A stretch of 64,000 nucleotides of DNA from Baekduia alba (GCF_028416635.1 NZ_CP114013.1:310001-374000), one strand, 5' to 3'. Counted from the stretch's first letter, positions 18,725 through 34,238 are shown. Program-made: numbers and translations. Notes: generated by a model from the sequence alone, not told the origin.

Positions 18725-18743
18725 CGCCCCGAGCGCCGCCGCT

Positions 18744-18763
18744 CCTCCCCCGCAGGGGTGAGG
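18744..18763 (+). terminator. C/G-run hairpin after the RlmD-like gene
   Basis: CCTCCCCC pairs with GGGGTGAGG (one bulged T) around GCA, 20 bp after the stop codon. A closely similar hairpin follows the GH18-like gene at 29092-29112. Confidence 0.55.
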
Positions 18764-18764
18764 G

Positions 18765-18928
18765 GCGCGCGACTTCAACCCACGGACTCCCACCTACGGG
18801 GGATGGGGATTCGGACGAGCGCGGCGGCGCCCTCATCTTGAGGGAGCGCCGGCGTCCAGCGGCGCCCTCCGGGCCGGGCGGTTCTCGCCGGCTCGCATCC
18901 GCTTTCCGACGACCTTCCCCTGGTGACC
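18765..18928 (+). promoter_or_regulatory. Leader/promoter region of the exopolysaccharide locus
   Basis: About 165 bp without a gene upstream of the UDP-sugar dehydrogenase. It contains the striking stretch TTCAACCC then, 13 bp later, TACGGGGGATGGGG (18800-18813), and the short palindromic run CCTCATCTTGAGGG near 18831. No Shine-Dalgarno precedes the ATG at 18929. The CGGGGGATG core recurs upstream of the sensor-kinase gene at 32567. A regulatory role is inferred from position and recurrence. Confidence 0.35.
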
Positions 18929-20248
18929 ATGTCCGCTGTCTACAACGACGCTGCCTCCGCAGCGGCGTCCGCCCTCGCCCCGCCCGCCTCCGACGTCGCG
19001 ACCGTCGCGGTCATCGGCATGGGCTACGTCGGCCTGCCGACCGCGCTCGCGCTGCGCGACGCCGGCTTCCCGGTCGTCGGCATCGACATCTCCGAGCAGC
19101 GGCTCGACGCGATCCGGTCCGGCGCGGTCGACCTGCTCGACCGCGACCGCCCGCGGCTGACCGAGGCGCTGCGCTCCGGCCTGCTGGACCTCACGAGCGA
19201 GCTGCGCGCGCTCGCCGCGGCCGACGCGGTGATCATCGCCGTGCCGACGCCGGTCGACGACGACTTCGCGCCCGACCTGCGCGCCGTGCACGCCGCCTGC
19301 GGGGCGGCGGTCATGCACGCCCGCGCCGGGCAGACGATCGTGCTGACCTCCACCACCTACGTCGGCACGACCCAGGAGCTGCTCGTCGAGCCGCTGACCG
19401 AACGCGGCTTCACGATCGGTGAGGACATCCACGTGGCCTTCGCGCCCGAGCGGATCAACCCGGGCGACGCGCTGTGGGAGCAGGCCACGGTGCCGCGCGT
19501 CCTCGGCGGCGCGACGCAGGCCTGCGCCGAGGCCGCGGCGCAGATCGTCGCCGCGACGGCGTCCAAGCTCCACGTCGTCTCCTCGCCCGAGGCGGCGGAG
19601 CTGACCAAGCTCCAGGAGAACACGTTCCGCGCCGTCAACCTGGCCTTCGCCAACGAGATGGCCGCCGCCGCCGGCTTCTACGGCGTCGACCCGGTCGAGA
19701 TCGTCGAGGCGGCGTCGACCAAGCCCTATGGGTACCTCGCCCACTACCCCGGGCCGGGCGTGGGCGGCCACTGCATCCCGGTCGACCCGTACTACCTGCT
19801 GGCCCCGCTGCGCGACGGCGGCGTGCCCTCGCCGGTCACCGAGTCGGCGATGGTCGCCGTCGCGGGCCGTCCGGCGGCGGTGGCCGATCGCGCGCTGGCC
19901 CTCACCGCTGAGCGCGGCATCGCCGACGCCGGCGCCCGCATCCTGCTCGTCGGCGTCGCCTACAAGCCCGGCGTCGAGGACCACCGCGAGTCGCCCGCGC
20001 TGCGGATCGCCGGCCGCCTGGCGCGCCGCGGCGCCCAGGTCAGCTACCACGACCCGCTGATCCCGACCGTCGACATCCCGGGCGCGGGCACGCAGCACAG
20101 CGTCGTCGCGCCTGACGCCGCCGACTACGACCTCGTCGTCGTCGCCGTGGTCCATCCCGAGCACCACTACGCGTTCCTGGCCGACGCCGAGCACGTCCTC
20201 GACGCGACCTACCGGACGCCGGGCGGCCAGTTCCGCCACGCGCTGTAG
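18929..20248 (+). CDS. Nucleotide-sugar dehydrogenase (UDP-HexNAc / UDP-glucose 6-dehydrogenase family)
   Basis: 439 aa. It oxidises C6 of a UDP-sugar to the uronic acid in two NAD+ steps. Visible: VAVIGMGYVGLPTALAL (Rossmann loop), VPTPVDDDF, TSTTYVGTT, FAPERINPGD, the lysine in ELTKLQENTFRAVN and the catalytic cysteine in GPGVGGHCIPVDPYY; AYKPGVEDHRESPA binds UDP. The FAPERINPG and GGHCIPVDP pattern is closer to WbpA/TviB/WecC (UDP-N-acetylhexosamine dehydrogenases) than to UDP-glucose dehydrogenase Ugd. It heads the polysaccharide cluster. Start: ATG at 18929; a GTG 6 nt upstream is possible. Confidence 0.92.
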   Translation: MSAVYNDAASAAASALAPPASDVATVAVIGMGYVGLPTALALRDAGFPVVGIDISEQRLDAIRSGAVDLLDRDRPRLTEALRSGLLDLTSELRALAAADAVIIAVPTPVDDDFAPDLRAVHAACGAAVMHARAGQTIVLTSTTYVGTTQELLVEPLTERGFTIGEDIHVAFAPERINPGDALWEQATVPRVLGGATQACAEAAAQIVAATASKLHVVSSPEAAELTKLQENTFRAVNLAFANEMAAAAGFYGVDPVEIVEAASTKPYGYLAHYPGPGVGGHCIPVDPYYLLAPLRDGGVPSPVTESAMVAVAGRPAAVADRALALTAERGIADAGARILLVGVAYKPGVEDHRESPALRIAGRLARRGAQVSYHDPLIPTVDIPGAGTQHSVVAPDAADYDLVVVAVVHPEHHYAFLADAEHVLDATYRTPGGQFRHAL

Positions 20249-20250
20249 CC

Positions 20251-21678
20251 GTGGCGCCCGTCACCGTCCAACCGCGCGAGGCGGAGCCGGACGCGACGTC
20301 CGTCGACGCCGAGCTCCAGGCGCTTGCCTCGCCGCGCGCGGCCGCCGGCGCGCCGGCCTCACCCGCCCTCGCCGCGCGCGAGCCGGGCACGTGGGTCGAC
20401 CGCGTCGCGCGCGGCCTCGCCGTCGTCTACCTGATCGCCCTGCTCGGCGCCGTCGTCGCCTACAAGGGCGCGTTCCTGCAGGCCGTGAGCGTCGATCCGC
20501 TGTTCACGGCCTACGGCATCGTCGTCAGCGCCTACATCATCACGCGGTTCGTGTTCAGCCTCTTCTACCGGCGCACGAAGAACGCCGGGCTCGAGCCGCG
20601 CGTGGCGATCGTGATGCCGGGCTTCAACGAGGAGGAGGCCATCGCGGCGTCGCTGCACAGCCTCCTGGCGCTCGCCTACCCCGCCGGCAAGCTCGAGATC
20701 GTCGCGGTCAACGACGGCTCGACCGACGGGACGCTGGCCGCGATGCGCGCCGTCGCCGAGCAGGCCGGCGGCCGCGTCCGCGTCATCGACCTCGGCGTCA
20801 ACCAGGGCAAGCGCGCCGCCATGGCGGCGGGCATCCGCGCGACCGACGCCGAGATCATCGCCTTCGTCGACTCCGACTCGGTGCTCGAGCCCGACGCGCT
20901 GCGCATCCTCGTGCAGAGCTTCGCCAACGCGAAGGTCGGCGCCGTCTGCGGCCACGCCGACGTGCTCAACGTGCGGGAGACGTGGCTGACGCGCATGCAG
21001 GCGGTCCGCTACTTCGTCGCCTTCCGCGTCGTCAAGGCGGCCGAGTCGATCTTCAGCTGCGTGACGTGCTGCTCGGGCTGCTTCTCGGCCTACCGCCGCG
21101 AGGCGATCCTTCCGCATCTCGAGTGGTGGGAGCATCAGAGCTTCCTCGGCAAGCCGTCGACCTTCGGCGACGACCGGTCGCTGACCAACTGCGTGCTGCG
21201 CAGCTGGAAGGTCCGCTACGAGGCGCGGGCCGTGAGCCACACGCTCGTGCCGACCACCTTCAAGCAGTTCATGACCCAGCAGCTGCGCTGGAAGCGGTCG
21301 TGGACGCGCGAGTCGCTGATCGTCGGCTCCTTCGTCTGGCGCAAGAACCCGATCGCGGCGCTGTCGATCTACGTCGGGATGGTGCTGCCGCTGATCGCGC
21401 CGATCGTCGCGCTGCGCACGATCGTCTACCTGCCCGCCGTCGAGGGCGCCGGCCTGCCGGCGGTCTACCTGCTCGGCGTCTACGCGATGGCGGTGGCCTA
21501 CGGCCTGTACTACGTCATCAGCAAGCCGCGCTACGACGGGCTGTGGATCTACGGCGTCGTCTTCTGCTTCTTCTACCTGTTCTTCCTGCTGTGGCAGACC
21601 TACTGGGCGATCGCGACCGCGCGCTCGTCCTCGTGGGGCACGCGCCCGGCGACGGCCGGGATGGACGGCGGCTCGTGA
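20251..21678 (+). CDS. Processive membrane glycosyltransferase family 2, HasA/NodC/PgaC-like polymer synthase
   Basis: 475 aa. Two N-terminal membrane helices (about 53-75 and 85-105) precede the cytoplasmic GT-A domain: VAIVMPGFNEEEAI, AVNDGSTDGT, FVDSDSVLEPD (DxD), CCSGCFSAYRRE, FGDDRSLTN and the processivity motif QQLRWKRSW. At least four C-terminal helices follow (from about 366). This arrangement is that of hyaluronan, chitooligosaccharide and poly-GlcNAc synthases, which polymerise and translocate a beta-linked polymer from UDP-GlcNAc, with or without a uronic acid donor. With the dehydrogenase before it and the deacetylase after it, a GlcNAc-containing exopolysaccharide is likely. The GTG start is 2 bp after the previous stop. 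Confidence 0.93.
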   Translation: MAPVTVQPREAEPDATSVDAELQALASPRAAAGAPASPALAAREPGTWVDRVARGLAVVYLIALLGAVVAYKGAFLQAVSVDPLFTAYGIVVSAYIITRFVFSLFYRRTKNAGLEPRVAIVMPGFNEEEAIAASLHSLLALAYPAGKLEIVAVNDGSTDGTLAAMRAVAEQAGGRVRVIDLGVNQGKRAAMAAGIRATDAEIIAFVDSDSVLEPDALRILVQSFANAKVGAVCGHADVLNVRETWLTRMQAVRYFVAFRVVKAAESIFSCVTCCSGCFSAYRREAILPHLEWWEHQSFLGKPSTFGDDRSLTNCVLRSWKVRYEARAVSHTLVPTTFKQFMTQQLRWKRSWTRESLIVGSFVWRKNPIAALSIYVGMVLPLIAPIVALRTIVYLPAVEGAGLPAVYLLGVYAMAVAYGLYYVISKPRYDGLWIYGVVFCFFYLFFLLWQTYWAIATARSSSWGTRPATAGMDGGS

Positions 21679-22679
21679 GGCGCGCCGCCGCCCTGCTGCG
21701 CCGCCGCGCCGCGCTGGCGCTGCTGCCGCTGTCGATCGTGCCCTTCGCGGCCGTCGCGCCGGTCATCGCCGACTCGCACCGGGCGTTCCAGCGCGAGCAC
21801 CACATGGGTCCGCTCGCGCCGATCCCGATGGTCCTGACCGCCCGCGAGGCCAAGGCCTTCACGCCGCCGGCGGCGCCGGCCGATCGCGTGCCGGTCCTCG
21901 CCTGGCACGGCATCTCCGACGCCGCGGACAGGCAGTCGACGACGCGGCGCGCGTTCGCCCGGCAGCTCGCGCTGCTGCACCACCTCGGCTACACGACGAT
22001 CGGGACCGCCCAGTGGGCCGCGTTCCGCGCCGGGCACGGGACGCTGCCGCGCCGGCCGATCCTGCTGACGTTCGACGACGGCCGGCTGGCGACCTACCGC
22101 GCCGCCGACCGGCTGCTGGAGCGCGCCGGGATGCGGGCGGCGATGTTCGTCACGACCCAGGCGGTCGAGCGCGGGGAGCCCAAGGACCTGCGGTGGTCCG
22201 AGCTGCAGCGGATGGTCCGCTCGGGCCGCTGGGACGTCGAGCCGCGCGGGCACGCGGGCGCCGTCCGGCTGACGGTCTCGGCCACCGGCGCGCAGGCGCC
22301 GTTCTACGCCGCGCGCCGCTACACCCGCTCCCAGGGCCAGGAGAGCCTGTCGGGCTGGGAGGCGCGCGTCGGCGAGGACCTGTTCGCCGTGCGCGACCGC
22401 TTCGCCGCCCAGGGCCTGACGCCGCACGCCTTCGCCGTCCCGTTCAGCGACTACGGGCAGGAGCGCGGCAACGACCCCGCCATCCCGCGGCTGCTCTCGG
22501 GGCTGCTCACGCGGCAGTTCGGCAGCTTCTTCGTCGAGGACCGCGCCGACCCGGGGTTCACCGCGCCGGGCGCCGGGCTCGCCGAGCGCTACCTGATGCG
22601 TCCCGGCACGAGCCTGGACGCGCTCTACGGCTGGCTTCGCCGGCACGCCCTCCATCGCCACCACCGGAACACGAGGTAG
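21675..22679 (+). CDS. Polysaccharide deacetylase, PgaB/IcaB-like (CE4)
   Basis: 334 aa with an N-terminal membrane anchor or signal (LALLPLSIVPFAAVAPVIA). VPVLAWHGIS and ILLTFDDGRLATY are CE4 motif regions with the catalytic/metal aspartates. PFYAARRYTRSQGQESLSGW and TPHAFAVPFSDYGQE resemble the PgaB/IcaB lineage that de-N-acetylates poly-beta-1,6-GlcNAc. The second metal motif is unusual: where HSxxH or HTxxH is normal, the protein reads DVEPRGHAGAVRL with only one His. Activity may thus be altered. GTGA overlap with the synthase stop indicates tight coupling. Confidence 0.85.
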   Translation: MRRAAALLRRRAALALLPLSIVPFAAVAPVIADSHRAFQREHHMGPLAPIPMVLTAREAKAFTPPAAPADRVPVLAWHGISDAADRQSTTRRAFARQLALLHHLGYTTIGTAQWAAFRAGHGTLPRRPILLTFDDGRLATYRAADRLLERAGMRAAMFVTTQAVERGEPKDLRWSELQRMVRSGRWDVEPRGHAGAVRLTVSATGAQAPFYAARRYTRSQGQESLSGWEARVGEDLFAVRDRFAAQGLTPHAFAVPFSDYGQERGNDPAIPRLLSGLLTRQFGSFFVEDRADPGFTAPGAGLAERYLMRPGTSLDALYGWLRRHALHRHHRNTR

Positions 22680-22683
22680 AACC

Positions 22684-24531
22684 ATGTGCGGGATCGTCGG
22701 ATACACGGGCGCTCGCCCGGCTGAGCCCCTGCTGCTCGACGGCCTCAGCGCCCTCGAGTACCGCGGCTACGACTCGGCGGGTGTCGCGCTCGCCCACGGG
22801 GACGGCAGCGTGGAGACCGTCCGCTCGGTCGGCAACCTCGGCGCGCTCCGCGCCGCGGTCGCCGAGCACGCCCTCGCGGGCGCCGGCACGGCGCTGGCGC
22901 TGCCCGATCCGACCGCGGGCATCGGCCACACGCGGTGGGCCACGCACGGGGCGGTCACCGAGGCCAACGCGCACCCCCACGCCGACGGCGAGGAGCGCGT
23001 GCACATCGTCCTCAACGGCATCGTCGAGAACTGGCTCCAATTGCGCCTCCAGCTGACGGCGCAGGGCGCCGAGTTCACCAGCGAGACCGACGCGGAGGTC
23101 GTCGCCCACCTGATCGGCTCGCTCTACGAGGGCGATCTGGGCGAGGCCGTCGACCGCGCGCGGCGCCGTCTGCGCGGCCACTTCGCGATCGCCGCGATCG
23201 CTTACGACCAGCCCGGCCTGATCGTCGGCGTCCGCCGCGAGTGCCCGCTGGTGGTCGGTGTCGGCGAGGGCGAGAGCTTCGTCGCCTCGGCCGTGGCGGC
23301 CTTCGCCGCGCAGACGCGGCGCGTGCTCGAGCTGGCCGACGGCGAGCTGGTCCGGGTGACGCCGGAGGGCGCCGACGTGGTCGGCCGCCCCGGCGCCGGG
23401 CGCCAGACCGTCCTCGTCGCCGAGGAGCAGCGCGCGCCCGACAAGGGCGCGTTCGACACGTTCATGCGCAAGGAGATCTCCGAGCAGCCGGACGGCGTCG
23501 CCGCCACGGTCTTCGAGCACCTCGCCGACGGCGACGGGCCGCAGCTCGGCATCCCGGACGAGGAGCTCGCGGGGCTGCGCGGCGTGCGCGTCGTCGCCTG
23601 CGGCACCTCGTATCACGCCGGCCTGGCCGCGCGGGAGATCATCGAGACCTGGGCGGGCCTGCCCGTCGAGGTCGACGTCGCCTCCGAGCATCGCCACCGC
23701 GCCGCCCCCGGCGGCGACGGCGAGCTGCTGATCGGCATCACGCAGTCGGGCGAGACCGCCGACACGCTGGCCGCGATGCGCGCCGCGCAGGCCCGCGGCA
23801 GCCGCGTGCTGGCGTTGACCAACATCGCCGACTCCCAGGCCGCGCGCGACGCCGACGCGGTCCTGCTCACGCGGGCGGGCGTCGAGATCGGCGTCGCCGC
23901 CACCAAGACGTTCACCGCGCAGGTCGCCGCGCTCGCGGCGCTCGGGCTGCGGCTGTCGGCGGCGCGCGGGGCGCTGGAGCCCGCCCGGCGCCGCGAGCTC
24001 GCGACCGAGCTCGCGCTCCTGCCCGACCTCATCGAGCGGGCCGTCGCCGACGGCGACGCCTGGGCCGCGCGCGCGGCGTCGCGGTTCGTCGACGCGCCGA
24101 TGGTCATGTTCCTCGGGCGCCAGGGCGGCGCGGCGATCGCGATGGAGGGCGCGCTCAAGCTCAAGGAGGTGTCCTACATCCCGTCGGACGCCTACCCCGC
24201 GGGCGAGATGAAGCACGGGCCGATCGCCCTGCTCTCGGCCGAGACCCCGGTCGTGTGCGTCGCGACCGCCGGCCCGCTGCGCGACAAGCTGCACTCCAAC
24301 ATGTCGGAGGTGCGGGCGCGCGGCGCGCACGTCACCGCCGTGGCCTGCCACACCGACGACGCCGTGGCGTCCCACGCCGACGACGTCGTCCGCGTCCCGT
24401 CGACGCTGCCCGAGCTGCAGCCGCTGCTGGCCGTCGTGCCGCTGCAGCTGCTGGCGCTGCACGTCGCCCTCGCGCGCGGGCTGAACGTCGACCAGCCGCG
24501 CAACCTCGCCAAGACCGTGACCGTCGAGTAG
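22684..24531 (+). CDS. glmS: Glutamine-fructose-6-phosphate aminotransferase (isomerizing)
   Basis: 615 aa, full length. It makes glucosamine-6-phosphate, the first step to UDP-GlcNAc. Cys-1 nucleophile: MCGIVGYTG. Glutaminase domain to about 240 with HTRWATHG and NGIVENW; two SIS domains with CGTSYHAGLA, TQSGETADTL and ATKTFTAQ; C-terminal SYIPSDAYPAGEMKHGPIAL and QPRNLAKTVTVE. It lies 4 bp after the deacetylase. I saw no glmS ribozyme, which would not fit in this spacing. Placement inside the polymer operon suggests dedicated precursor supply. Confidence 0.97.
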   Translation: MCGIVGYTGARPAEPLLLDGLSALEYRGYDSAGVALAHGDGSVETVRSVGNLGALRAAVAEHALAGAGTALALPDPTAGIGHTRWATHGAVTEANAHPHADGEERVHIVLNGIVENWLQLRLQLTAQGAEFTSETDAEVVAHLIGSLYEGDLGEAVDRARRRLRGHFAIAAIAYDQPGLIVGVRRECPLVVGVGEGESFVASAVAAFAAQTRRVLELADGELVRVTPEGADVVGRPGAGRQTVLVAEEQRAPDKGAFDTFMRKEISEQPDGVAATVFEHLADGDGPQLGIPDEELAGLRGVRVVACGTSYHAGLAAREIIETWAGLPVEVDVASEHRHRAAPGGDGELLIGITQSGETADTLAAMRAAQARGSRVLALTNIADSQAARDADAVLLTRAGVEIGVAATKTFTAQVAALAALGLRLSAARGALEPARRRELATELALLPDLIERAVADGDAWAARAASRFVDAPMVMFLGRQGGAAIAMEGALKLKEVSYIPSDAYPAGEMKHGPIALLSAETPVVCVATAGPLRDKLHSNMSEVRARGAHVTAVACHTDDAVASHADDVVRVPSTLPELQPLLAVVPLQLLALHVALARGLNVDQPRNLAKTVTVE

Positions 24532-24564
24532 CGCTCCGGCGCCCTCCCTTCCCTCGAGGACCCG

Positions 24565-26718
24565 ATGACCCTCCGTTCCCTCACGTCCTTCGCGGCGCTC
24601 GCCGTCGCGCTCGCGCTGACGACCGCCGCCGCGCCCGCCTCCGCGGCCGCGGCGCCGGCGTGCTCCACCGTCCGGCCCGCGCACCTGCGCGTCGCGCCGA
24701 GCACCGGCGCCGCCGATCGCGTCATCGTCGCGTGGAGTGTGCCGCCGCGGCGGCCCGCCCGGCTCGCCTACCGCGTCCTGCGCGACGGCGCCGTCGTCGG
24801 CCAGACCTCCTCGCGGCGGATGAGCATCGCGCTGCCGCCCGGCAAGCGCGCGCGGGTCACGGTCGTCGCCGTCGTCGGCGGTCGGCCGACGCGGTGCTCC
24901 GCCCGGATCACGGTCGGCGGCGCGCAGGCGCCCGCCGGCGCGGTCGTCGGGCTGGCCGCCCGGCCCGGCGCGCGCGGGCACGCCGTGCTGTTGTGGGATC
25001 GCCCGGCCGGCAGCGCGCCCGCCGGCTACCGGATCCTGCGCGACGGGCGCGTCGCCCAGCGCGTGACGCGGCCGTCGCTGACCGTGCCGATGACCAAGCG
25101 CGCGGTGCGCTATCAGGTCGCCACGCTGGACGCCAAGGGACGCCGCGGGCCGCGCTCCTCGACCGTGACCGTGCAGGCCGGCCACCGGCCGCCCACCCGG
25201 CCGGCGGGCGCCGGCGCCGCGGCGGTCACGGGTTCCTCGATCACCTTGAGCTGGGGGCGCTCGCGCGCCGTGCGCGGCCGGATCGCCGGCTACCGCGTCC
25301 AGCGCGCCGGGCGCACGGTCAAGGCCGTGCGCGCCACGCGCGTCACGCTGCCCAAGGCGGCGGGCGCGAGCTACCGGATCGTGGCGCTGGACACCGCCGG
25401 CTGGGCCTCGGCCGACTCCGACCCGATCACCGTCGGGGCCAACGCGCCCGTGTCGGGGAAGAGCCGGCCCGGGGCGCCGGCTCCGCACGGCGCGCCCGGC
25501 GCGCCCGGCGCGCCCGTCGCGGCCGCGGTGGGCGACACCACGCTCTCGCTCAGCTGGAGCCCCGCTCCGCTGCCGGACGGCTCCGCGCTGCGCGGCTATC
25601 GGCTCATCCGCGACGGCGTCATCGTCGCGCAGGTGGCGGACGCGCAGGCCGAGGTCGCCAACCTCGAGCCGAAGTCCGGCCACGACTGGTCGGTCGCGGC
25701 GGTCGACACGACCGGCGTGGTGTCGGCGCCGTCGCCGGTCACGCACGTCCTGCAGGCCGACCCGCCGCCGACCCTCGGCACGGCCCAGGCGTTCCTGCTG
25801 GCGTCGACGGACTCGTCCTTCGCCGCGTTCCGCAAGACCTACCGCCAGATCGGCGTCATCTACCCGACCTTCTGGGACTGCGATCACGCGAGCGCGGCGC
25901 TCGGCGGCCGCAACGACGCCGACATCGTGCGCTTCGCACAGGACCGCAAGGTCAAGGTCCTGCCGCGCATCAACTGCCAGAGCACCGCGATCCTGCACCG
26001 GATCCTCACCGAGCCGGCGCTGCGCGAGACGTGGCTGAGCGGGGTGGTCGGCCTCGTCGACCAGTACGGCTACGACGGCCTCAACCTCGACTTCGAGGCG
26101 GTCGCCGCCGCCGATCGCGACGCGCTCACGAGCTTCGTCATCGACCTGTCCGGGCGGCTGCACGCCCAGGGCAAGCTGCTCTCCCAGGACGTCTCGCCGA
26201 AGACCAAGGACATCCCCAACCACCCGCGCGGCACGGCGTTCGACTACGCGGCGATCGCGCCGCACCTCGACTGGGTGTTCGTGATGGCGTGGGGCGGGCA
26301 CTGGTCCACCAGCGCGCCGGGCCCGATGGACGACATCGGGTGGGTCCGCCACATCGCCGACTACGTCTCGACGATGCCCAACCACGAGCGCTTCGTCATC
26401 GGGACCATGTTGTACGGGATGGACTGGGTCGGCGACGGCGGACCCGACCACCCCGGAGAGGGGCGGCACTACCCGGAGATCCAGCAGCTGATCGCGCGCT
26501 ACGGCGCCACGCCGATCTACGACGCCGACGTGGACTCCTGGCACCTGTCCTACACCGACGAGGCCGGAGCGGCGCACACCGTGTGGTACCCGGACGCGGC
26601 GACGACCGGCCGCCGGCTCGCGGTCGCCCGCGAGCACGGTCTCGGCATCGGGTTCTGGCGGCTGGGCCAGGAGGACGACCGGCTGTGGAGCGCCCCGGAG
26701 CTGGCGGTGGCCGGATGA
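24565..26718 (+). CDS. Secreted Fn3-repeat protein with C-terminal GH18-like domain
   Basis: 717 aa. Signal peptide (VALALTTAAAPASA), then about four fibronectin-III-like repeats up to ~400, each with a GYRVLRDG or GYRLIRDG-type strand. The GH18-like barrel follows (about 405-717): IGVIYPTFWDCDH, YGYDGLNLDFEAV (the DxxDxDxE signature region ending in the catalytic Glu), FVMAWGGHWS and GIGFWRLGQED. GH18 enzymes and relatives cleave or bind beta-linked GlcNAc polymers. Because it lies between glmS and glmM, it probably trims, releases or binds the polymer. Enzyme activity is likely but not proven. Confidence 0.88.
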   Translation: MTLRSLTSFAALAVALALTTAAAPASAAAAPACSTVRPAHLRVAPSTGAADRVIVAWSVPPRRPARLAYRVLRDGAVVGQTSSRRMSIALPPGKRARVTVVAVVGGRPTRCSARITVGGAQAPAGAVVGLAARPGARGHAVLLWDRPAGSAPAGYRILRDGRVAQRVTRPSLTVPMTKRAVRYQVATLDAKGRRGPRSSTVTVQAGHRPPTRPAGAGAAAVTGSSITLSWGRSRAVRGRIAGYRVQRAGRTVKAVRATRVTLPKAAGASYRIVALDTAGWASADSDPITVGANAPVSGKSRPGAPAPHGAPGAPGAPVAAAVGDTTLSLSWSPAPLPDGSALRGYRLIRDGVIVAQVADAQAEVANLEPKSGHDWSVAAVDTTGVVSAPSPVTHVLQADPPPTLGTAQAFLLASTDSSFAAFRKTYRQIGVIYPTFWDCDHASAALGGRNDADIVRFAQDRKVKVLPRINCQSTAILHRILTEPALRETWLSGVVGLVDQYGYDGLNLDFEAVAAADRDALTSFVIDLSGRLHAQGKLLSQDVSPKTKDIPNHPRGTAFDYAAIAPHLDWVFVMAWGGHWSTSAPGPMDDIGWVRHIADYVSTMPNHERFVIGTMLYGMDWVGDGGPDHPGEGRHYPEIQQLIARYGATPIYDADVDSWHLSYTDEAGAAHTVWYPDAATTGRRLAVAREHGLGIGFWRLGQEDDRLWSAPELAVAG

Positions 26719-28055
26719 GCGCGGTGATCGCAGCGCCGGCGGAGCGCCGGCTGTTCGGCACCGACGGGATCCGCGGCGTGGCGGGCGAGCGGCTCAGCGC
26801 GCACCTGGCGCTGCGCCTCGGCGCCGCCGCGGCGACGCTCTCCGAGCGTGCCCGGCCGCGGGCGCTGATCGTCCGCGACACGCGCGCGTCCGGGCCGATG
26901 CTCGAGGCCGCGCTCGCCGCGGGCCTGGCCGGGGCGGGGGTCGACGTCGTGCTCGGCGGCGTCGCGCCGACGCCCGCGGCCGCGCTCGGCGTGCTGGCCG
27001 ACGGCCTGGACCTCGGCGTGGTCGTCTCCGCCTCGCACAACCCTCACCGCGACAACGGCATCAAGTTCTTCGGCGCCGACGGCCACAAGCTCACCGACGC
27101 GCAGGAGGCCGCGCTCGAGGCGCGGCTCGACGCCGCGCCGGCCCCGCCGGCGCGCTTCGGCACCGTCGCGGTCAGCGACGCGCCGGCGCGCGCCTACGCC
27201 CGTGCGCTGCTGCGGCGCTTCGCGGGCCTGGAGCTCGAGGGGCGGCGGATCGTCCTGGACTGCGCCAACGGCGCCGCGTTCAAGATCGCGCCGCGCGTGT
27301 TCCGCGCGCTCGGCGCGCGCGTCACCGTCGTGGGCGACGCGCCGGACGGCCGCAACATCAACGCCGGCGTGGGCTCCACGCATCCCGAGACGCTGCAGGC
27401 CGCGATGGCCGGCGGCCGGTACGACGCGGGGTTCGCGTTCGACGGCGACGCCGACCGCGTGCTGGCCTGCGACCGGGCCGGCCGGCTGCTGGACGGCGAC
27501 GACCTCCTCGTCCTGGCCGCGACCCATTTGCGCGCCGCCGGGCGCCTTCCGGGCGACGGCGTCGCCGTCACCGCGATGAGCAACTTCGGCGCTCGCCGGG
27601 CGCTCGCGGCCGCCGGCATCGCGCTGTGCGAGACGCCGGTCGGCGACCGCCACCTGCTCGTCGCGCTGCGCGAGCGCGGCTGGGCGCTGGGCGCCGAGCC
27701 CTCAGGACATCTCATCGATCGCAACTTCGCCCCGTCGGGCGACGGGACCGCGGCGGCCCTGCTGTGCCTCGAGGCGCTCGGCGGCCGCGAGCTGGCCGAC
27801 GTCGAGCCGTTCGACCGGCTGCCCCAGGCGCTGGTCAACGTCGCCATCGCCGGGCACGCGCCCCGGACCGCCGCCCACGACGCCGTGCGCGGCGCGATCC
27901 GCGACGCGGAGCGTGCGCTCGCGGGGCGCGGACGCGTGCTCGTGCGGCCCTCGGGCACCGAGCCGCTGGTGCGCGTCATGGCGGAGGCGCCGTCGCTGGC
28001 GGAGGCCGAGGCGGTCTGCGCGACGCTGGCCGCCGTGGTGTCGGCCTGCGCCTGA
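26715..28055 (+). CDS. glmM: Phosphoglucosamine mutase
   Basis: 446 aa. It converts GlcN-6-P to GlcN-1-P. LFGTDGIRGVAG at the start, the phosphoserine loop VVSASHNPHRDNGIKFF, the Mg site AFDGDADRVL, the sugar loop GAEPSGH and the phosphate loop VRPSGTEPLVRVM are intact. It overlaps the preceding GH18-like gene by 4 bp (ATGA). With glmS in the same run, two of the three UDP-GlcNAc enzymes are co-transcribed with the polymer synthase. Confidence 0.97.
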   Translation: MSAVIAAPAERRLFGTDGIRGVAGERLSAHLALRLGAAAATLSERARPRALIVRDTRASGPMLEAALAAGLAGAGVDVVLGGVAPTPAAALGVLADGLDLGVVVSASHNPHRDNGIKFFGADGHKLTDAQEAALEARLDAAPAPPARFGTVAVSDAPARAYARALLRRFAGLELEGRRIVLDCANGAAFKIAPRVFRALGARVTVVGDAPDGRNINAGVGSTHPETLQAAMAGGRYDAGFAFDGDADRVLACDRAGRLLDGDDLLVLAATHLRAAGRLPGDGVAVTAMSNFGARRALAAAGIALCETPVGDRHLLVALRERGWALGAEPSGHLIDRNFAPSGDGTAAALLCLEALGGRELADVEPFDRLPQALVNVAIAGHAPRTAAHDAVRGAIRDAERALAGRGRVLVRPSGTEPLVRVMAEAPSLAEAEAVCATLAAVVSACA

Positions 28056-28069
28056 GCCGGGCTGCGGCG

Positions 28070-29104
28070 GTGGGCGCGGCGCTCGCGCGGCTCGGGACCC
28101 TGGCCGCCGTCGCCGCGGCGCTCGCGGCGGCGCCGCCGCCCGCCGGCGCCCCGCGCGCGCCCGGGCCGCCGCCGCGCGTGTTCGCGTTCGTCTCCTCGGT
28201 CGGCGGCGAGGAGCTCGCCCGGCTGCGCCGCGTCGGCGCGAAGATCGACGTGGTCGCCCCGAACTGGTACACGCTGGCTCCTGCCTCGGGCGCGCTGGCC
28301 GGGCCGTCGCCCGGGCGCCGGGAGGCGCTGCTGGACGCGGCCCGCGCGCACCACGTCCGGGTCTGGCCGGTGGTCAACGCCCGCACCGGCGGCGGCCGCG
28401 CCTGGACGGGCGCGCACGCCCGTCGCCGGATCGTGCGCGCGCTGGCCGTCGCGGCCGCGAGCCGGGGTGCGACGGGCGTGACGTTGGACATGGAGGAGCT
28501 GCGCGTCACGCAGCGCGACGCGTTCACCGCGCTGGTGGGCGCGGCCGCGCGGCGCCTGCACCGGCACGATCGCCGGCTCGCCGTCTACGTGCCCCGGCCC
28601 GGTCCGGGCACACGCGCGGCCTACGACTGGGCGGCGATCGCCCGGCGGGTCGACCTGCTGCTCACGGCCGGCTACAACGAGCACTGGGCGGGCGGCCCGC
28701 CGGGTCCGATCAGCACGACGGGCGGCTTCGACCAGGTGGTCGAGCGCGGGCTCGCGCTGGCCGGGCCGGCCAGGGCGGTCCCGCTGCTCGGAGCGTTCGG
28801 CTACCGCTGGCCGGCGGCCGGCCGCGGCACGCTGCTGTCCTCGGCGGAGGCCGAGCGCCTGCGCCGCGCCAACGGCGCCGGGGCCCTGCAGGAGGACGGG
28901 TCGTCGCGCTTCCAGCTCGGCGGCGACACCGTGGTCTACGAGACCGCGGCGGGCCTGCGGGCGCGGGCGGCCGCGGCCCGGGCGGGTGGCGCGACCTGGC
29001 TGGGCCTCTTCTCGCTCGGCCGTGAGCCCGAGCGGTTCTGGGACGGCCTGGCGACCGCGCGGCGCACCCGATCGGCGGGCGTGACCTCCGCGCCTCCCCC
29101 CTAA
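28070..29104 (+). CDS. Second secreted GH18-like protein (spore-germination YaaH-type fold)
   Basis: 344 aa from GTG 28070, which gives a signal peptide (LGTLAAVAAALAAAPPPAGA). The rest is a compact GH18-like barrel: VFAFVSS, KIDVVAPNWYTL, GVTLDMEEL (position of the DxDxE signature; one Asp and Glu kept), VDLLLTAGYNEHWAG and VPLLGAFGYRW. This pattern is closest to YaaH/YdhD-type GH18 proteins that act on GlcNAc-containing wall or cortex polymers. It follows glmM by 14 bp. A hairpin overlaps its stop codon. Confidence 0.8.
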   Translation: MGAALARLGTLAAVAAALAAAPPPAGAPRAPGPPPRVFAFVSSVGGEELARLRRVGAKIDVVAPNWYTLAPASGALAGPSPGRREALLDAARAHHVRVWPVVNARTGGGRAWTGAHARRRIVRALAVAAASRGATGVTLDMEELRVTQRDAFTALVGAAARRLHRHDRRLAVYVPRPGPGTRAAYDWAAIARRVDLLLTAGYNEHWAGGPPGPISTTGGFDQVVERGLALAGPARAVPLLGAFGYRWPAAGRGTLLSSAEAERLRRANGAGALQEDGSSRFQLGGDTVVYETAAGLRARAAAARAGGATWLGLFSLGREPERFWDGLATARRTRSAGVTSAPPP

Positions 29105-29112
29105 GGGGGAGG
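29092..29112 (+). terminator. Hairpin terminating the exopolysaccharide operon
   Basis: CCTCCCCC and GGGGGAGG pair as a perfect 8-bp stem around CTAA. The TAA in the loop is the stop codon of the GH18-like gene. It resembles the hairpin at 18744-18763 that precedes the operon, so the two mark its edges. Confidence 0.6.
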
Positions 29113-29194
29113 AGGGGGTCAAGTCTGTCGCGCGTGCGCTAGTCATACGGGCCGCTCCGTCCGTCCGTCCCCCGCCGTCCGTCGTCTCGCGTCC

Positions 29195-31066
29195 GTGTCC
29201 ACCGTCCCGCTGCACACCTGGGTCGAGCCCTGGCTCGTCGCCCTGTCCATCTTCACCGCCGCCGTCTGGTCGTTCACCGCGATCGAGCTGGTCGGTCGCC
29301 TGCGCCTCGTCGTGCAGCCGGCCGTGCGTCATCGCTGGCTCGCCGCGGCGGCGGTCGCGCTCGGCTGCGGGGTCTGGGGCACGCAGTTCACGGGGATGTT
29401 GGCCTTCCGGGTCCCGGCCACGGTCCGTTACGACCCGCGGCTGGTCGCCGCGTCGCTCGTCCTGGCCGGGATCGGCGGCGCCTGCGCGCTGGCCGCGGGC
29501 ATGCCGCCCCGGCCGGGCCGGCGCCGGCAGCAGGCCGCCGCGCTCGGCTTCGGCGCCGCGGTCGCCGCGGCGCACGTCGTGGCGATGAGCGCGATGCGCG
29601 CCGACGGCGTGACGCGCCGCTGGGACGCGGCGGTCCTGCTGGCCTCGATCGTCCCCGCGACGGCCGGCGCGCTGGGCGGGCTGTCCCTGGCGCTCGGCCG
29701 GCCGGGCGACGCGCCGTCGACCTGGCGCCGCGGGGCGGGCGGCGTGCTGCTCGGCGCCGGCATCGCGGCGACGCAGTACGTCGGGATGAGCGCGGTCGGC
29801 CTGCGCGCGCCCGCCGGCCCGCCGGCGGGCGGCTCCGGCGCCCAGGTCCTCACCGCGGGCCTCGTGGCCGCCGTCGCGCTGAGCATCCTCGGCGCCGCCC
29901 TGGCGCAGTCGCTCGTCCACCGGCGCGCGATCGAGGACGCGCGCGTCATGCGCGCGGTCGGCGAGGCGCTGCGGGAGATGAGCGCCGGACTGGACGGCCG
30001 CCACGCCGTGTGCGAGGCCGCGCAGCGCATCACCGGGTGCGTCGTGGCGTGCCTGTACGACCTCGTCGCCGACGGGCCGCCGCGCCCGGCCGCGACCGCC
30101 GGGCTGGCGCTCCGTGAGACCCATCACGTAGGAACGCACATCATAGAGGCGATCGAGGCGGTCCGCCACGAGCGCCGCGGTCGCGTCGTCGCCGACGCCC
30201 CCGGCGGTCCGCTGCTGCTCGAGCCCGTCCTGCGCGACGGCCGGGTGGCCGCCGTCCTGTGCCTGGAGCTCGCGCGCCGCACGGCGCTGCCGTCCCGGCG
30301 CCGGCGCGCGGCGGTCCGGCTCCTGGCCGCCGAGGCCGCGGTCGCGATCGAGCGTGCCGAGCTGGTGGAGCGCCTGCGTGCCTCCGACCGGACCGAGGCT
30401 GCCACGCGGCTGGCCAGGGACCTGCACGACTCCGTCTCGCAGGAGGTCTCGCTGGCGTCCTGGTACGCGCAGCTGGCGATCAAGGCGTTCGACGACGACC
30501 GGCCCGACGCGCGCGACCTCGTGGTCCGCGCCGCCGAGCAGCTCTCGCGCACCCAGGACGAGATGCGCGACGTGCTGCGCGGGCTGCGCGAAGGGCGCCG
30601 GGCGCTCGACGGGGAGGCCACAGTGCCCGAGCTCGTCGAGGCGCTCGCCGCCGAGCACGCGCGCAGCGGCCGTTGCGCCGTGTCCGTGGTCCAGGACGGA
30701 GACGACTGGCAGCAGCTCGGCGCCGGCGTGGGCGAGGCGCTCTACTTCGCGGTGCGCGAGGCCATCAACAACGCCGACAAGCACGCCGCGGGCGCGGATG
30801 TCCACGTCGGGCTGCGGGCCGGCAGGGGCAGCGTCAGCGCGATGGTCCACGACGACGGCCCCGGCTTCGACCCCGACCGCATCCCCGAGGGTCGCTGGGG
30901 CCTGCTGGGCATGCGCGAGCGCGCCGAGCGCCTCGGCGGCGTGGTCGTCGTCCGGGCGAGCGCGGGCAGCGGGACGACGGTGACCGTCACGCTCCCGCGG
31001 CACGGCGGCGAGCGGCGGGCCGGCGCGGGCGCCGACGCGCCGCGCGCCGAGGCGGCCGAGGGCTAG
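29195..31066 (+). CDS. Membrane sensor histidine kinase with degenerate MHYT domain (NarL/DesK class)
   Basis: 623 aa. About seven N-terminal helices (to ~245) resemble the MHYT sensor, with motif remnants TQFTGM, AHVVAM and TQYVGM; the metal-ligating His is largely replaced. A GAF-like region (about 250-400) precedes HisKA_3 with LARDLHDSVSQEVS (phospho-His) and HATPase_c with REAINNADKH, DDGPGFD and GRWGLLGMRERAERLGG. MHYT domains have been proposed to sense O2, CO or NO through copper. Next door are an orphan receiver and the polysaccharide operon. GTG start. Confidence 0.9.
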   Translation: MSTVPLHTWVEPWLVALSIFTAAVWSFTAIELVGRLRLVVQPAVRHRWLAAAAVALGCGVWGTQFTGMLAFRVPATVRYDPRLVAASLVLAGIGGACALAAGMPPRPGRRRQQAAALGFGAAVAAAHVVAMSAMRADGVTRRWDAAVLLASIVPATAGALGGLSLALGRPGDAPSTWRRGAGGVLLGAGIAATQYVGMSAVGLRAPAGPPAGGSGAQVLTAGLVAAVALSILGAALAQSLVHRRAIEDARVMRAVGEALREMSAGLDGRHAVCEAAQRITGCVVACLYDLVADGPPRPAATAGLALRETHHVGTHIIEAIEAVRHERRGRVVADAPGGPLLLEPVLRDGRVAAVLCLELARRTALPSRRRRAAVRLLAAEAAVAIERAELVERLRASDRTEAATRLARDLHDSVSQEVSLASWYAQLAIKAFDDDRPDARDLVVRAAEQLSRTQDEMRDVLRGLREGRRALDGEATVPELVEALAAEHARSGRCAVSVVQDGDDWQQLGAGVGEALYFAVREAINNADKHAAGADVHVGLRAGRGSVSAMVHDDGPGFDPDRIPEGRWGLLGMRERAERLGGVVVVRASAGSGTTVTVTLPRHGGERRAGAGADAPRAEAAEG

Positions 31067-31071
31067 GACCC

Positions 31072-31428
31072 GTGGTCAAGCGGGTGCTGGTGGTCGACGA
31101 CCATCCGGGCGTGACGCTCGCGCTGCGCGTGTCGTTCCGCCTCGACGGGCGCTTCGCCGTCTCCGACAGCGCGGAGACCGCGGCGGACGGCCTGGCCAAG
31201 CTCGACGGGCAGGACGCGGTGCTGCTGGACCTGCACCTCCCGGACCTGTCGGGCCTGCCGCTGGTCCGCGCGTTCCGCGCGCGCCGTCCTGAGGTGCCGA
31301 TCGTGCTGCACTCGGCCGCGGGCGACTCGCCGGAGGTCGACGCCGTGCGCGGGCTCGTGGACGCGGTGACCGTCAAGGGCCCGGTCGACGAGCTGCTCGC
31401 GGTCCTCGGGCGGCTGACGGCGGGGTGA
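31072..31428 (+). CDS. Single-domain response regulator
   Basis: 118 aa, receiver domain only: VLVVDDHPGV (acidic pocket), phospho-acceptor Asp in DAVLLDLHLPD, LHSAAGD at the Thr/Ser switch position and VTVKGPVDE with the conserved Lys. There is no DNA-binding output, so it works by protein contact or as a phosphate sink. GTG, 5 bp after the kinase stop, so kinase and regulator form a pair. Its last 56 bp overlap the 3' end of the convergent glmU-like gene. Confidence 0.88.
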   Translation: MVKRVLVVDDHPGVTLALRVSFRLDGRFAVSDSAETAADGLAKLDGQDAVLLDLHLPDLSGLPLVRAFRARRPEVPIVLHSAAGDSPEVDAVRGLVDAVTVKGPVDELLAVLGRLTAG

Positions 31429-32491
31429 CCCCGGAGCGCAGGTGCGCGAACGGGCCGACGGCGGCGTCGTCCTCCACGGCGCAGTCCTCGAGCACCGAGT
31501 GCAGGACGCTCACGCGGTCCCCGAGCCGCGCGGACCGCAGCGTCGCGTGCGGGCCGACGCGGCAGCCGGCCCCGACCACCGTGGCGCCCTCCAGCTGGCA
31601 GCCCGGCTCGACGACGGTCCCGGGACCGATGCGCACGTCGGCGTCGATCACCGTCGTCGCCGGCTCGACGATCGTCACGCCGGCGCGCAGGTGGGCGTCG
31701 AGGATGCGCGCCTGGGCCACGGCGCGCACCGCTACGAGGTCGGCCTGGTCGTTGACGCCGAGGCAGACCGCCGCGTCGCCGGTCTCGTGCGCGGCGATCC
31801 GGTGGCCGGCGGCGCGCAGCAGCGCCGGCGTGTCGGACAGGTAGAGCTCGCCCTGGGCGTTGTCGGGCTTGAGCGCCGGCAGCGTCGCGAGCAGCGCGCC
31901 GCCGTCGAAGCACAGGACCCCGGTGTTGACCTCGTCGATGGCGAGCTCGGCCGCGGTCGCGTCGCCCGGCTGCTTGGTCTCGACCACGCGCAGCACGTCG
32001 CCGCGCTCGTCGCGCACGACGCGGCCGTAGCCGGCCGGCTCGTCGAGGCGCATGGTGAGGACCGTCAGAGCCGCGCGGGCGCGGGTATGGGCGGCCACGA
32101 GGTCGGTGACGGTCGCGGCGGTCACCATCGGCACGTCGCCGGCGAGCACGACGACCGGCCGGTCGGCGTCGAGGTGCTCGGCGGCGCAGCGCACGGCGTC
32201 GCCGGTGCCGCGGGCCTCGGGCTGCGTGGCGACGATCACGGCGTCGGGCACGTGCGGCGCGAGGTCGGCGCCGGGCCCGGCGACGACGATGACGCGGTCG
32301 GCGGCCGCGCCCAGCGCCGCGCGCGCCGTCCACGCCACCATCGGCCGCCCGCAGATCGGGTGCAGGACCTTGGGCAGCGGGCTGCGCATCCTCGTGCCGT
32401 GCCCGGCGGCGAGGACGACGACGGCCGGCGCCGGGGACGACGGTGTGGAGGTCACTCGCGCAGGTTCGCGGCGCCGGGCGCGGATCTCCAT
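31373..32491 (-). CDS. GlmU-like UDP-GlcNAc pyrophosphorylase lacking the acetyltransferase half
   Basis: 372 aa; bifunctional GlmU is about 455-480 aa. The uridylyltransferase domain is complete: VVVLAAGHGTRMRSPLPKVL, QPEARGTGDAVRCA, LAGDVPM, AGYGRVVRD, EVNTGVLCF, NAQGELYLSD and CLGVNDQADLVAV. The left-handed beta-helix starts (TTVIDADVRIGPGTVVEPG) but stops just after VGPFAHLRSG, at the site of E. coli Arg333. All later acetyl-CoA and GlcN-1-P residues (E. coli Lys351, His363, Tyr366, Asn377) are missing. It should form UDP-GlcNAc from GlcNAc-1-P but not acetylate GlcN-1-P. Start: ATG at 32491; a GTG at 32455 is the alternative. Confidence 0.88.
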   Translation of the reverse strand: MEIRARRREPARVTSTPSSPAPAVVVLAAGHGTRMRSPLPKVLHPICGRPMVAWTARAALGAAADRVIVVAGPGADLAPHVPDAVIVATQPEARGTGDAVRCAAEHLDADRPVVVLAGDVPMVTAATVTDLVAAHTRARAALTVLTMRLDEPAGYGRVVRDERGDVLRVVETKQPGDATAAELAIDEVNTGVLCFDGGALLATLPALKPDNAQGELYLSDTPALLRAAGHRIAAHETGDAAVCLGVNDQADLVAVRAVAQARILDAHLRAGVTIVEPATTVIDADVRIGPGTVVEPGCQLEGATVVGAGCRVGPHATLRSARLGDRVSVLHSVLEDCAVEDDAAVGPFAHLRSGVTPPSAARGPRAARRPGP

Positions 32492-32566
32492 CGGCGCTAC
32501 CCCATGCGGGGGATGACGGCGGCGCGACGGGGCCGCGAACGCGGGCCACCCTGCTACACCGCCCGC
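32492..32566. promoter_or_regulatory. Divergent region between glmU-like gene and sensor protein
   Basis: 75 bp holding CCCCATGCGGGG (a 4-bp-arm hairpin) merged with CGGGGGATG at about 32507-32515, the motif also found before the UDP-sugar dehydrogenase. TACACC at 32555-32560 lies 6 nt before the plus-strand ATG, as in other leaderless starts here. Confidence 0.35.
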
Positions 32567-33544
32567 ATGGTCCCCGACGCCGACGCAGGGCACGCCGCCG
32601 TCGCGGTCTGGGAGCGCGCCGCGCGCGAGGTCGCGGCCCTCCTCGGGTCGGCGTCCTTCGATCTGCGCTTCTCACTGATGGAGGGCGGCGCCGCGGTACG
32701 CGGCGCGTCCGGCGCGTCCGGGCCGGTCGCGCCACGGCACGCCGAGCCGGCCCCGCCGCCGGCGCCGTGGATGGTCGAGGCGCGCTGCGGCGCCGCGACG
32801 GGCTGGCTGCTGGCCGCGCAGGCGCCGCCGGACGCGGCGGCCGAGCGCGCCGCGGAGGTGCTGCGCCGCGCGACCGACGGGCGGGTCGCGCTGCTGCTCC
32901 AGCAGCGCACGCGCCGGCACGCGGTCCTGTTCGCCGACCTGCTGGAGTCGCTCACGCACCGGCTGCGGACCGACGTGAGCACCCTGCAGCTCGTGGCCGA
33001 CGGCGCGCTGCGCGACGTGTTCGGCGACGACGAGCGTGCGTCCGTCGCCCGCGAGCTGCGGGAGCTGGAGGCCGAGTCGCAGCGGCGGCTGTCCGGGGTG
33101 CGCGAGGTCATGGCCGCGCTGGAAGCGGCGGCGGTCGCCCGCGCCGAGCCGGTCGCCGCGGTGCTGGCCGACGCGTTCGCGGCCGCCGGCGTGGACCTGG
33201 AGGTCCAGGGCGGCGAGGACGCCGGCGCGCGGGCGGTGGCGCTGATGCCCGCGCCGGGGTGGTCGGCCTGCGCGCGTATGCTCGCCGAGGCGCTGGCGGC
33301 CGATCCCCGTCTCGGCGGCGAACGCGCGGTGGTGGCGATCTCTGCCCACCCCGACGGATGGCGCGTCATCGCTGGCGGGGCCGGTCGGGCGCAGGCGCCG
33401 GTCGGCTGGACGCACCAAGAACTAGGTGTTCTGGCGGGCGCTGGAGCCGTCGTGAGCGCCGCCCTTGGCGACGTCTGCGCGGTTCGCACCCGAGATGATG
33501 CACTTCGTGTCGAGTGGACGATTCCGGCGGCTTCCTCGTCGTAG
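32567..33544 (+). CDS. Histidine-kinase-like sensor protein without a recognisable ATPase core
   Basis: 325 aa, soluble. The N-terminal 120 residues may be a GAF-like sensor. VLFADLLESLTHRLRTDVSTLQ (about 128-147) looks like a DHp dimerisation helix, with the His in the S/T-H-x-L-R context of class I kinases. Beyond it no N-box or glycine-rich G1/G2 boxes are visible; the C-terminal part is a divergent alpha/beta region (VVAISAHPDGWRVIAGG). It may be a degenerate kinase or phosphatase, or a phosphotransfer partner. A LuxR-type response regulator follows 47 bp downstream. Confidence 0.65.
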   Translation: MVPDADAGHAAVAVWERAAREVAALLGSASFDLRFSLMEGGAAVRGASGASGPVAPRHAEPAPPPAPWMVEARCGAATGWLLAAQAPPDAAAERAAEVLRRATDGRVALLLQQRTRRHAVLFADLLESLTHRLRTDVSTLQLVADGALRDVFGDDERASVARELRELEAESQRRLSGVREVMAALEAAAVARAEPVAAVLADAFAAAGVDLEVQGGEDAGARAVALMPAPGWSACARMLAEALAADPRLGGERAVVAISAHPDGWRVIAGGAGRAQAPVGWTHQELGVLAGAGAVVSAALGDVCAVRTRDDALRVEWTIPAASSS

Positions 33545-33591
33545 AGTGAGGCGGGCGCACCCCGCCGTCCCACGCGGAGTCGCGCGCTCCG

Positions 33592-34233
33592 ATGCCGTCT
33601 CTCTCCGTTCCCCTCGTCGTCGTCGACGATCACCCCATGGTCGTCCTCGGCCTCCGCACGCTCTTCCACCAACGGCCCGAGGTGGAGGTCGTCGCCTACG
33701 CGCACGACGCCGCGGCGGCGCTCGCGGCCTGTCGCGAGCACCGGCCGCGGGTCGTCATCCTCGACGTCGCGCTGGAGGGCTCGCCGATCGACGGGTTCGC
33801 GCTGTGCCGCCGCGTCCGGGCCGAGATCGCATCGGTGGAGGTCGTGTTCTACACAGGGCGCGAGGAGATCGGGATCGCCAACCAGGCGTTCGCCGCCGGG
33901 GCGCACGGCGTGGTCTCCAAGGCCGACGCGTCGAGCGACCTGCTGCGGGCGATCCTGCTCGTGTCGCGCGGCAAGACCTACACTTCGCCGGTGTTCGCGG
34001 CGCGGGCCGAGGCAACCGAGTTCGGCGACCTGTCGCCCAAGCAGCTGGCGGTGCTCCGCCACCTCGCCGAGGGACGCGATCGCAAGGAGATGGCCCAGCG
34101 GATGGGCATCGGCGAGGAGACGGTCAAGACCCATCTCGCCGAGGTCCGCCGCAAGCTCGGCGCGCGCACGTCCGCCCAAGCGGTGGCGATCGGCCTGCTC
34201 AACGCCCTGTTCGATCCCGCGGCGGCGCCCTAG
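33592..34233 (+). CDS. LuxR/NarL-family response regulator
   Basis: 213 aa. The receiver (about 5-125) has VVVDDHPMV and the phospho-acceptor in VVILDVALEG, with VVSKADA (conserved Lys) near its end. The C-terminal LuxR HTH (about 148-210) reads LSPKQLAVLRHLAEGRDRKE, then MGIGEETVKTHLAEVRRKLG, a normal DNA-recognition helix. It probably pairs with the sensor before it and is the only DNA-binding regulator in the polysaccharide/signalling segment, so it is a candidate controller of that locus. Confidence 0.92.
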   Translation: MPSLSVPLVVVDDHPMVVLGLRTLFHQRPEVEVVAYAHDAAAALAACREHRPRVVILDVALEGSPIDGFALCRRVRAEIASVEVVFYTGREEIGIANQAFAAGAHGVVSKADASSDLLRAILLVSRGKTYTSPVFAARAEATEFGDLSPKQLAVLRHLAEGRDRKEMAQRMGIGEETVKTHLAEVRRKLGARTSAQAVAIGLLNALFDPAAAP

Positions 34234-34238
34234 CGCCG

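What the first reader, a model, noticed from the sequence alone, without database searches (positions are those of the whole stretch)
18929..34233. A self-contained aminosugar exopolysaccharide locus with its own precursor supply and signalling
The sequence shows, in order on the plus strand: a UDP-sugar dehydrogenase, a HasA/NodC-like GT2 polymerase, a PgaB/IcaB-like deacetylase, glmS, an Fn3-GH18-like protein, glmM and a second GH18-like protein, bounded by two similar hairpins (18744 and 29092). A membrane histidine kinase, a lone receiver, a truncated GlmU, a second sensor and a LuxR regulator follow. Polysaccharide operons rarely carry both glmS and glmM. The combination of uronic-acid donor, GlcNAc polymerase and deacetylase suggests a zwitterionic polymer unlike hyaluronan or PNAG. 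The polymer structure is inference.
Basis: partly seen in the sequence, partly recalled or inferred. Interest (0 to 1): 0.8.

Follow-up and report, generated by a model that had tools for sequence, protein, structure and literature searches.

The report
Hyaluronan-synthase-like sugar polymer gene island
A soil actinobacterium carries a compact 15.5-kb gene island that looks built to make and export an amino-sugar polymer with a hyaluronan-synthase-like machine, extra precursor enzymes and its own regulators, but the enzyme that was thought to give the polymer positive charges has lost its metal-binding residues.

Summary
The locus is real and is a discrete unit. In a same-genus relative the flanks (window to 18753, and from 34237) are separated by only 552 bp, and in Candidatus Solirubrobacter pratensis the DH-to-LuxR block recurs with different upstream DNA. 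Seven plus-strand genes (18923-29104) are packed as one likely operon. The synthase folds like class I hyaluronan synthase (VIA Z 35.9; chitin synthase 27.8) but forms a separate actinobacterial clade, usually next to a nucleotide-sugar dehydrogenase and a PgaB-like protein. GlmS (second copy) is shared with several relatives; GlmM (second copy) is essentially unique to this genome among about 50 loci. Best reading: an N-acetylated, acidic hyaluronan-like polymer, GlcNAc plus an N-acetylhexosaminuronic acid, trimmed by secreted GH18 enzymes. Polymer chemistry is inference. New variant of a known kind (synthase-dependent exopolysaccharide).

The parts
18754..34236 (.). Whole island, absent from a same-genus genome where the flanks lie 552 bp apart (an RTX-like small gene sits there instead)
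   Evidence: blastn of window against G270 region: 17663-18753 and 34237-35245 collinear, 552 bp between
18746..18803 (.). Imperfect inverted repeat at left edge, after the upstream methyltransferase gene
   Evidence: no U-tract
18923..20248 (+). Nucleotide-sugar 6-dehydrogenase, UDP-HexNAc type (motif GGHCIPVDPYYL)
   Evidence: TIGR03026 357 bits; UDP-ManNAc DH models about 210 bits vs TuaD 108, Ugd 59; closest PDB Cap5O
20251..21678 (+). Membrane GT2 polymer synthase, hyaluronan-synthase-like, with GDDR, QxxRW and WGTR motifs
21675..22679 (+). PgaB/IcaB-like CE4 protein, both metal histidines replaced (R191, A196); probable pseudoenzyme
22684..24531 (+). GlmS paralogue (glutamine-fructose-6-phosphate transaminase), second copy in genome
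24565..26718 (+). Secreted Fn3-GH18 protein, catalytic motif DGLNLDFE kept
26715..28055 (+). GlmM paralogue (phosphoglucosamine mutase), second copy; SASHNP motif present
28040..29104 (+). Second secreted GH18-like protein (GVTLDMEE)
29094..29111 (.). Perfect hairpin over the stop codon of the last operon gene, candidate terminator or mRNA end
29195..31066 (+). MHYT-GAF-HisKA_3 membrane histidine kinase
31069..31428 (+). Stand-alone receiver domain
31373..32593 (-). C-terminally truncated GlmU (uridyltransferase plus partial left-handed helix)
   Evidence: another, longer GlmU frame elsewhere at C1:1086270
32570..33544 (+). Protein with a weak HisKA-like stretch by eye, no Pfam match; conserved in S. 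pratensis
33592..34233 (+). LuxR-family response regulator

Best explanation
A horizontally variable exopolysaccharide island. GlmS2 and GlmM2 (with housekeeping or truncated GlmU) raise the UDP-GlcNAc supply; the dehydrogenase oxidises UDP-GlcNAc (or an epimer) to an N-acetylhexosaminuronic acid donor; one hyaluronan-synthase-like membrane GT2 uses both donors and pushes the chain out through its own channel; the membrane-anchored PgaB-fold protein now acts as a non-catalytic chain-binding or assembly factor in this species; secreted GH18 enzymes trim or release the chain; the two-component genes control expression. Shown: gene content, order, fold, island borders, loss of the metal ligands, recurrence of DH-GT2-CE4 in many actinobacteria. 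Inferred: donor identity, alternation, linkage, export, role of the CE4-like and GH18 proteins, regulation.
For: Fold: GT2 model (pLDDT 86.7) matches CvHAS at Z 35.9 and XlHAS1 at 35.1, ahead of chitin synthase 27.8 and cellulose synthase 27.7. Acceptor-collar residues around GlcNAc in XlHAS1 (Y288, F292, C307, D342, R343, W382, S385; PMC11750622) are kept as Y254, F258, C273, D308, R309, W347, S350 in the alignment. DH is directly upstream of GT2 in 8 of 16 Thermoleophilia and 17 of 26 other loci, CE4 directly downstream in 12 of 18 and 25 of 31; GT2 and CE4 are one ORF in L100. DH is UDP-HexNAc type: over 21 homologues the UDP-ManNAc DH models give the best E-values (2e-76, 5e-74), UDP-Glc DH models weaker ones (4e-56, 2e-36, 4e-17). 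Cluster genomes with a linked GlmS (G000, G198, G228, G195) hold 2-3 GlmS; three same-genus genomes without the cluster hold one. GH18 within 6 kb in 11 of 12 Thermoleophilia loci. Island border. Island genes are closer to S. pratensis (GlmS 81%, GT2 78%) than housekeeping GlmM (70%) or the flanking methyltransferase (64%).
Against: No biochemical data. The GT2 clade is distinct from both HAS and NodC, and the residues near the GlcA carboxylate in CvHAS (K177, R341; PMC12987647) are shared by NodC too, so use of a uronate donor is not proved by sequence. The DH is not next to the GT2 in half of the Thermoleophilia loci. No dedicated export or lipid-anchor gene was seen.
Confidence: 0.5

Rival explanations
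1. The GT2 makes a beta-linked GlcNAc homopolymer (chitin- or PNAG-like), and the dehydrogenase serves another glycan.
For: NCBIfam's best GT2 model is NodC (198 bits, cut-off 550), then PgaC; CE4 and GH18 partners are typical of chitin/PNAG systems; Paenibacillus has CE4-GT2-CE4-GH18 with no annotated dehydrogenase between; DH not adjacent in half of the Thermoleophilia loci.
Against: DH abuts the GT2 in 25 of 42 loci with room; the fold is nearest HAS.
Confidence: 0.25
2. True hyaluronan (GlcNAc-GlcA): a has-type operon with extra genes.
For: HAS fold and DH next to the synthase, extra UDP-GlcNAc pathway genes as in the S. zooepidemicus has operon (glmU, phosphoglucoisomerase; PMC4930576).
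Against: The DH is nearest to UDP-ManNAc dehydrogenases, with GGHCIPVDP instead of the CxPKD of UDP-Glc enzymes (the CxPKD motif is general knowledge); the GT2 falls outside the HAS pair.
Confidence: 0.12
3. One reading: a partly deacetylated, zwitterionic polymer.
For: PgaB fold (Z 26.9); 23 of 39 homologues keep D-D-H-H, including S. pratensis; Actinomadura clusters add two further CE4 genes; unlinked CE4-like genes exist in this genome.
Against: In this window both metal histidines are R and A, confirmed by an independent alignment with E. coli PgaB; catalytic loss at least three times and gene loss at least twice among Thermoleophilia relatives.
Confidence: 0.1

Closest known systems
Streptococcal has operon / class I hyaluronan synthase
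   Same: HAS-fold membrane GT2 next to a nucleotide-sugar dehydrogenase, with additional UDP-GlcNAc pathway genes
   Different: Dehydrogenase is of UDP-HexNAc type; adds CE4-fold and GH18 proteins, GlmS and GlmM; the GT2 is a separate clade
pga / ica (PNAG) systems
   Same: GT2 synthase plus PgaB-fold protein, with glycoside hydrolase partner (PgaB C-domain; separate GH18 here)
   Different: GT2 is HAS-like and far below the PgaC model cut-off; dehydrogenase present; CE4 metal site lost in this window
NodBC chitooligosaccharide synthase/deacetylase
   Same: GT2 next to CE4; NodC is the best curated model hit
   Different: 28% identity to NodC, score 198 against cut-off 550, no NodA seen, dehydrogenase and GH18 present
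CE4 pseudoenzymes (e.g. Bacillus anthracis BA3943, PDB 7bkf)
   Same: CE4 fold retained with catalytic residues lost
   Different: PgaB/IcaB branch, within a synthase operon, lost repeatedly among relatives

Membership tests
Class I hyaluronan synthase | HAS fold with GDDR, QxxRW and WGT(R/S) motifs | tested here: met
   VIA Z 35.9 over 370 residues, motifs in the alignment
Class I hyaluronan synthase | Falls within the HAS clade | tested here: not met
   Window clade of 45 sequences separate (0.885) from CvHAS+XlHAS1 and NodC; deep nodes unresolved, few HAS references
Class I hyaluronan synthase | Makes GlcNAc-GlcA polymer | not testable with these tools
   needs biochemistry
has operon | UDP-glucose dehydrogenase (HasB) next to the synthase | tested here: not met
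   DH is UDP-HexNAc type by model scores, nearest PDB and motif; substrate itself untested
PNAG pga/ica | PgaC/IcaA synthase (TIGR03937) | tested here: not met
   143.6 bits, cut-off 422.3
PgaB/IcaB N-deacetylase | PgaB N-domain fold | tested here: met
   Z 26.9, 2.5 A over 249 residues to 4f9d
PgaB/IcaB N-deacetylase | Asp-His-His metal site | tested here: not met
   D135 kept, PgaB H184/H189 replaced by R191/A196
NodC | TIGR04242 cut-off | tested here: not met
   198.5 bits, cut-off 550
GlmS | TIGR01135 equivalog, N-terminal MCGIVGY | tested here: met
   682 bits, cut-off 418
GlmM | TIGR01455 equivalog, SASHNP serine loop | tested here: met
   466 bits, cut-off 447.6
GlmU (bifunctional) | Both domains, TIGR01173 cut-off | tested here: not met
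   312.9 bits, cut-off 366.9; acetyltransferase domain incomplete
GH18 | Family match and acidic catalytic motif | tested here: met
   Fn3-GH18: Pfam 69.6 bits, YdhD 1.6e-35, DGLNLDFE; second protein weaker

The most novel reading that the evidence does not exclude
The actinobacterial DH-GT2-CE4 clusters define a new class of hyaluronan-synthase relatives that make an all-HexNAc-derived acidic polymer (GlcNAc alternating with GlcNAcA or ManNAcA), whose charge is tuned in evolution by repeated loss of the linked deacetylase.
Probability: 0.3. Interest if true: 0.7.

Novelty: new variant of a known kind. Interest (0 to 1): 0.5.

Why it matters
A widespread bacterial relative of hyaluronan synthase with its own dedicated dehydrogenase would give a natural test of how one active site selects two donors, and a possible source of new glycosaminoglycan-like polymers from soil actinobacteria. 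The repeated decay of the linked deacetylase suggests how the charge of an envelope polymer can be switched in evolution.

Tried and rejected
RNA families and tRNAs in the window: none. Sigma-70 promoter scan: none; terminator scan did not call either hairpin. Residue test for GlcA binding (K177, R341 of CvHAS) is uninformative because the same residues occur in NodC. Literature searches for such clusters in actinobacteria or Solirubrobacter found no description; the operon survey PMC7112194 was read only by keyword passages, and those did not mention it. Considered and rejected: glmS/glmM as the sole housekeeping copies (a pair sits at 4.31 Mb); chance proximity (recurrence in many genera); a decaying pseudogene for the CE4 (open frame; dN/dS 0.67, similar to the GH18 genes at 0.69 and 0.54, though dS is rough in such GC-rich DNA). 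A tblastx synteny run timed out and was replaced by tblastn/blastn.

Full report
Setting. The window is G000:C1:310001-374000 of a single-contig 5.86-Mb genome, GC-rich; its closest cluster relatives are in Solirubrobacter and Conexibacter.

Genes. GlmS and GlmM pass their curated equivalog cut-offs, carry MCGIVGY and SASHNP, and are second copies: a housekeeping glmM-glmS pair lies at C1:4311019-4314544 with 58% and 56% identity, and another GlmU in a 477-codon open frame at C1:1086270. The truncated GlmU of the window is on the minus strand and its C-terminus is cut inside the left-handed helix domain.

Synthase. By sequence the closest solved relatives are hyaluronan synthases; NodC is the best curated model, well below cut-off. 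The predicted fold (pLDDT 86.7) is that of hyaluronan synthase: Z 35.9 to CvHAS, with chitin synthase at 27.8. In a tree the window's GT2 sits in a mostly actinobacterial clade (0.885) apart from HAS and NodC; the deeper branching is unresolved. The GlcNAc acceptor-collar residues described for XlHAS1 (PMC11750622) are kept.

Dehydrogenase. Best PDB matches are Cap5O and an archaeal UDP-ManNAc dehydrogenase; model scores run UDP-ManNAc DH 214 and 208, TviB 150, then UDP-Glc enzymes 138, 108, 59, with the same order of best E-values over 21 homologues; the Cys motif is GGHCIPVDP here and GGHCIP(C/V)DP in most homologues. That this motif marks UDP-HexNAc enzymes is general knowledge of the family, not a test made here.

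Deacetylase-like protein. The model is PgaB-like (Z 26.9). The two Asp are kept, the two metal His are R191 and A196; a separate phmmer alignment to E. coli PgaB (HTWNSH) puts the same residues opposite its two His (the numbers H184 and H189 are from my knowledge of the PgaB structure). S. pratensis keeps both His. Of 39 homologues 23 keep all four residues. On the GT2 tree the state changes five times from an intact ancestor: at least three catalytic losses and two gene losses (branch support in that part is uneven).

Conservation. Orthologues (44-69% identity) occur in 10 of 299 sampled genomes of the class, in several families, and in none of three same-genus genomes. The genome-contig scan adds Solirubrobacter, Conexibacter, Actinomadura, Actinoallomurus, Mycobacterium, Nocardioides, Arthrobacter, Pseudonocardia, Frankia and Nitrospinota. 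The recurrent core is DH-GT2-CE4; GlmS (6 of 15 loci with room) and the Fn3-GH18 (11 of 12) are mostly Thermoleophilia additions; GlmM is found only in the window apart from an N-terminal GlmM fragment joined to the GT2 in one MAG contig (L080); the MHYT kinase and the truncated GlmU are window-specific; REC, SENS and LuxR recur together only in S. pratensis, where a PAS histidine kinase stands in the place of GlmU.

Island. In G270 (same genus; flanking methyltransferase 94% identical) window 17663-18753 and 34237-35245 are collinear with 552 bp between them holding a small RTX-like gene. In S. pratensis nucleotide similarity starts at 18992 and stops at 34214, and the upstream methyltransferase lies on another contig. 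Island genes are more alike between the two species (GlmS 81%, GT2 78%) than housekeeping GlmM (70%) and the methyltransferase (64%), which points to horizontal gain; loss in the three same-genus relatives is the alternative. The island GlmM is a long-branch outlier (57-61% to all housekeeping copies).

Conclusion. A synthase-dependent exopolysaccharide island, with a HAS-like synthase in an arrangement for which I found no description. The chemistry of the polymer remains inference.

Noticed in passing
L083:8745-15838 and other Actinomadura/Actinoallomurus loci: A six-gene version: DH, GT2, PgaB-like CE4 with an extra C-terminal domain, two more CE4 genes and a small secreted protein without Pfam match.
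   Followed up: partly
L100:3030-5573: GT2 and CE4 fused in one open frame in a Thermoleophilia MAG.
   Followed up: partly
L055/L080:5032-7254: N-terminal GlmM fragment in frame with the GT2 in a MAG contig; real fusion or assembly artefact is open.
   Followed up: no
window 18724-34240; G270 (L161) and G298 (L163) equivalents: The methyltransferase-GNAT junction looks like a variable site: a 15.5-kb island here, an RTX-like gene in G270, other DNA after the methyltransferase in G298.
   Followed up: partly
L095:9797-17298 (Nitrospinaceae MAG): GT2 followed by a CE4 protein and a 1391-aa TPR-CE4 protein.
   Followed up: no
L115 (Paenibacillus cellulositrophicus plasmid): CE4-GT2-CE4-GH18 order outside actinobacteria, GT2 40% identical.
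   Followed up: partly
L086:1259-4278 (Candidatus Frankia meridionalis): Carries this GT2-CE4 pair (48% identity to the window GT2); whether it is distinct from the nodBC genes described for Frankia (PMC4447401) was not tested.
   Followed up: no
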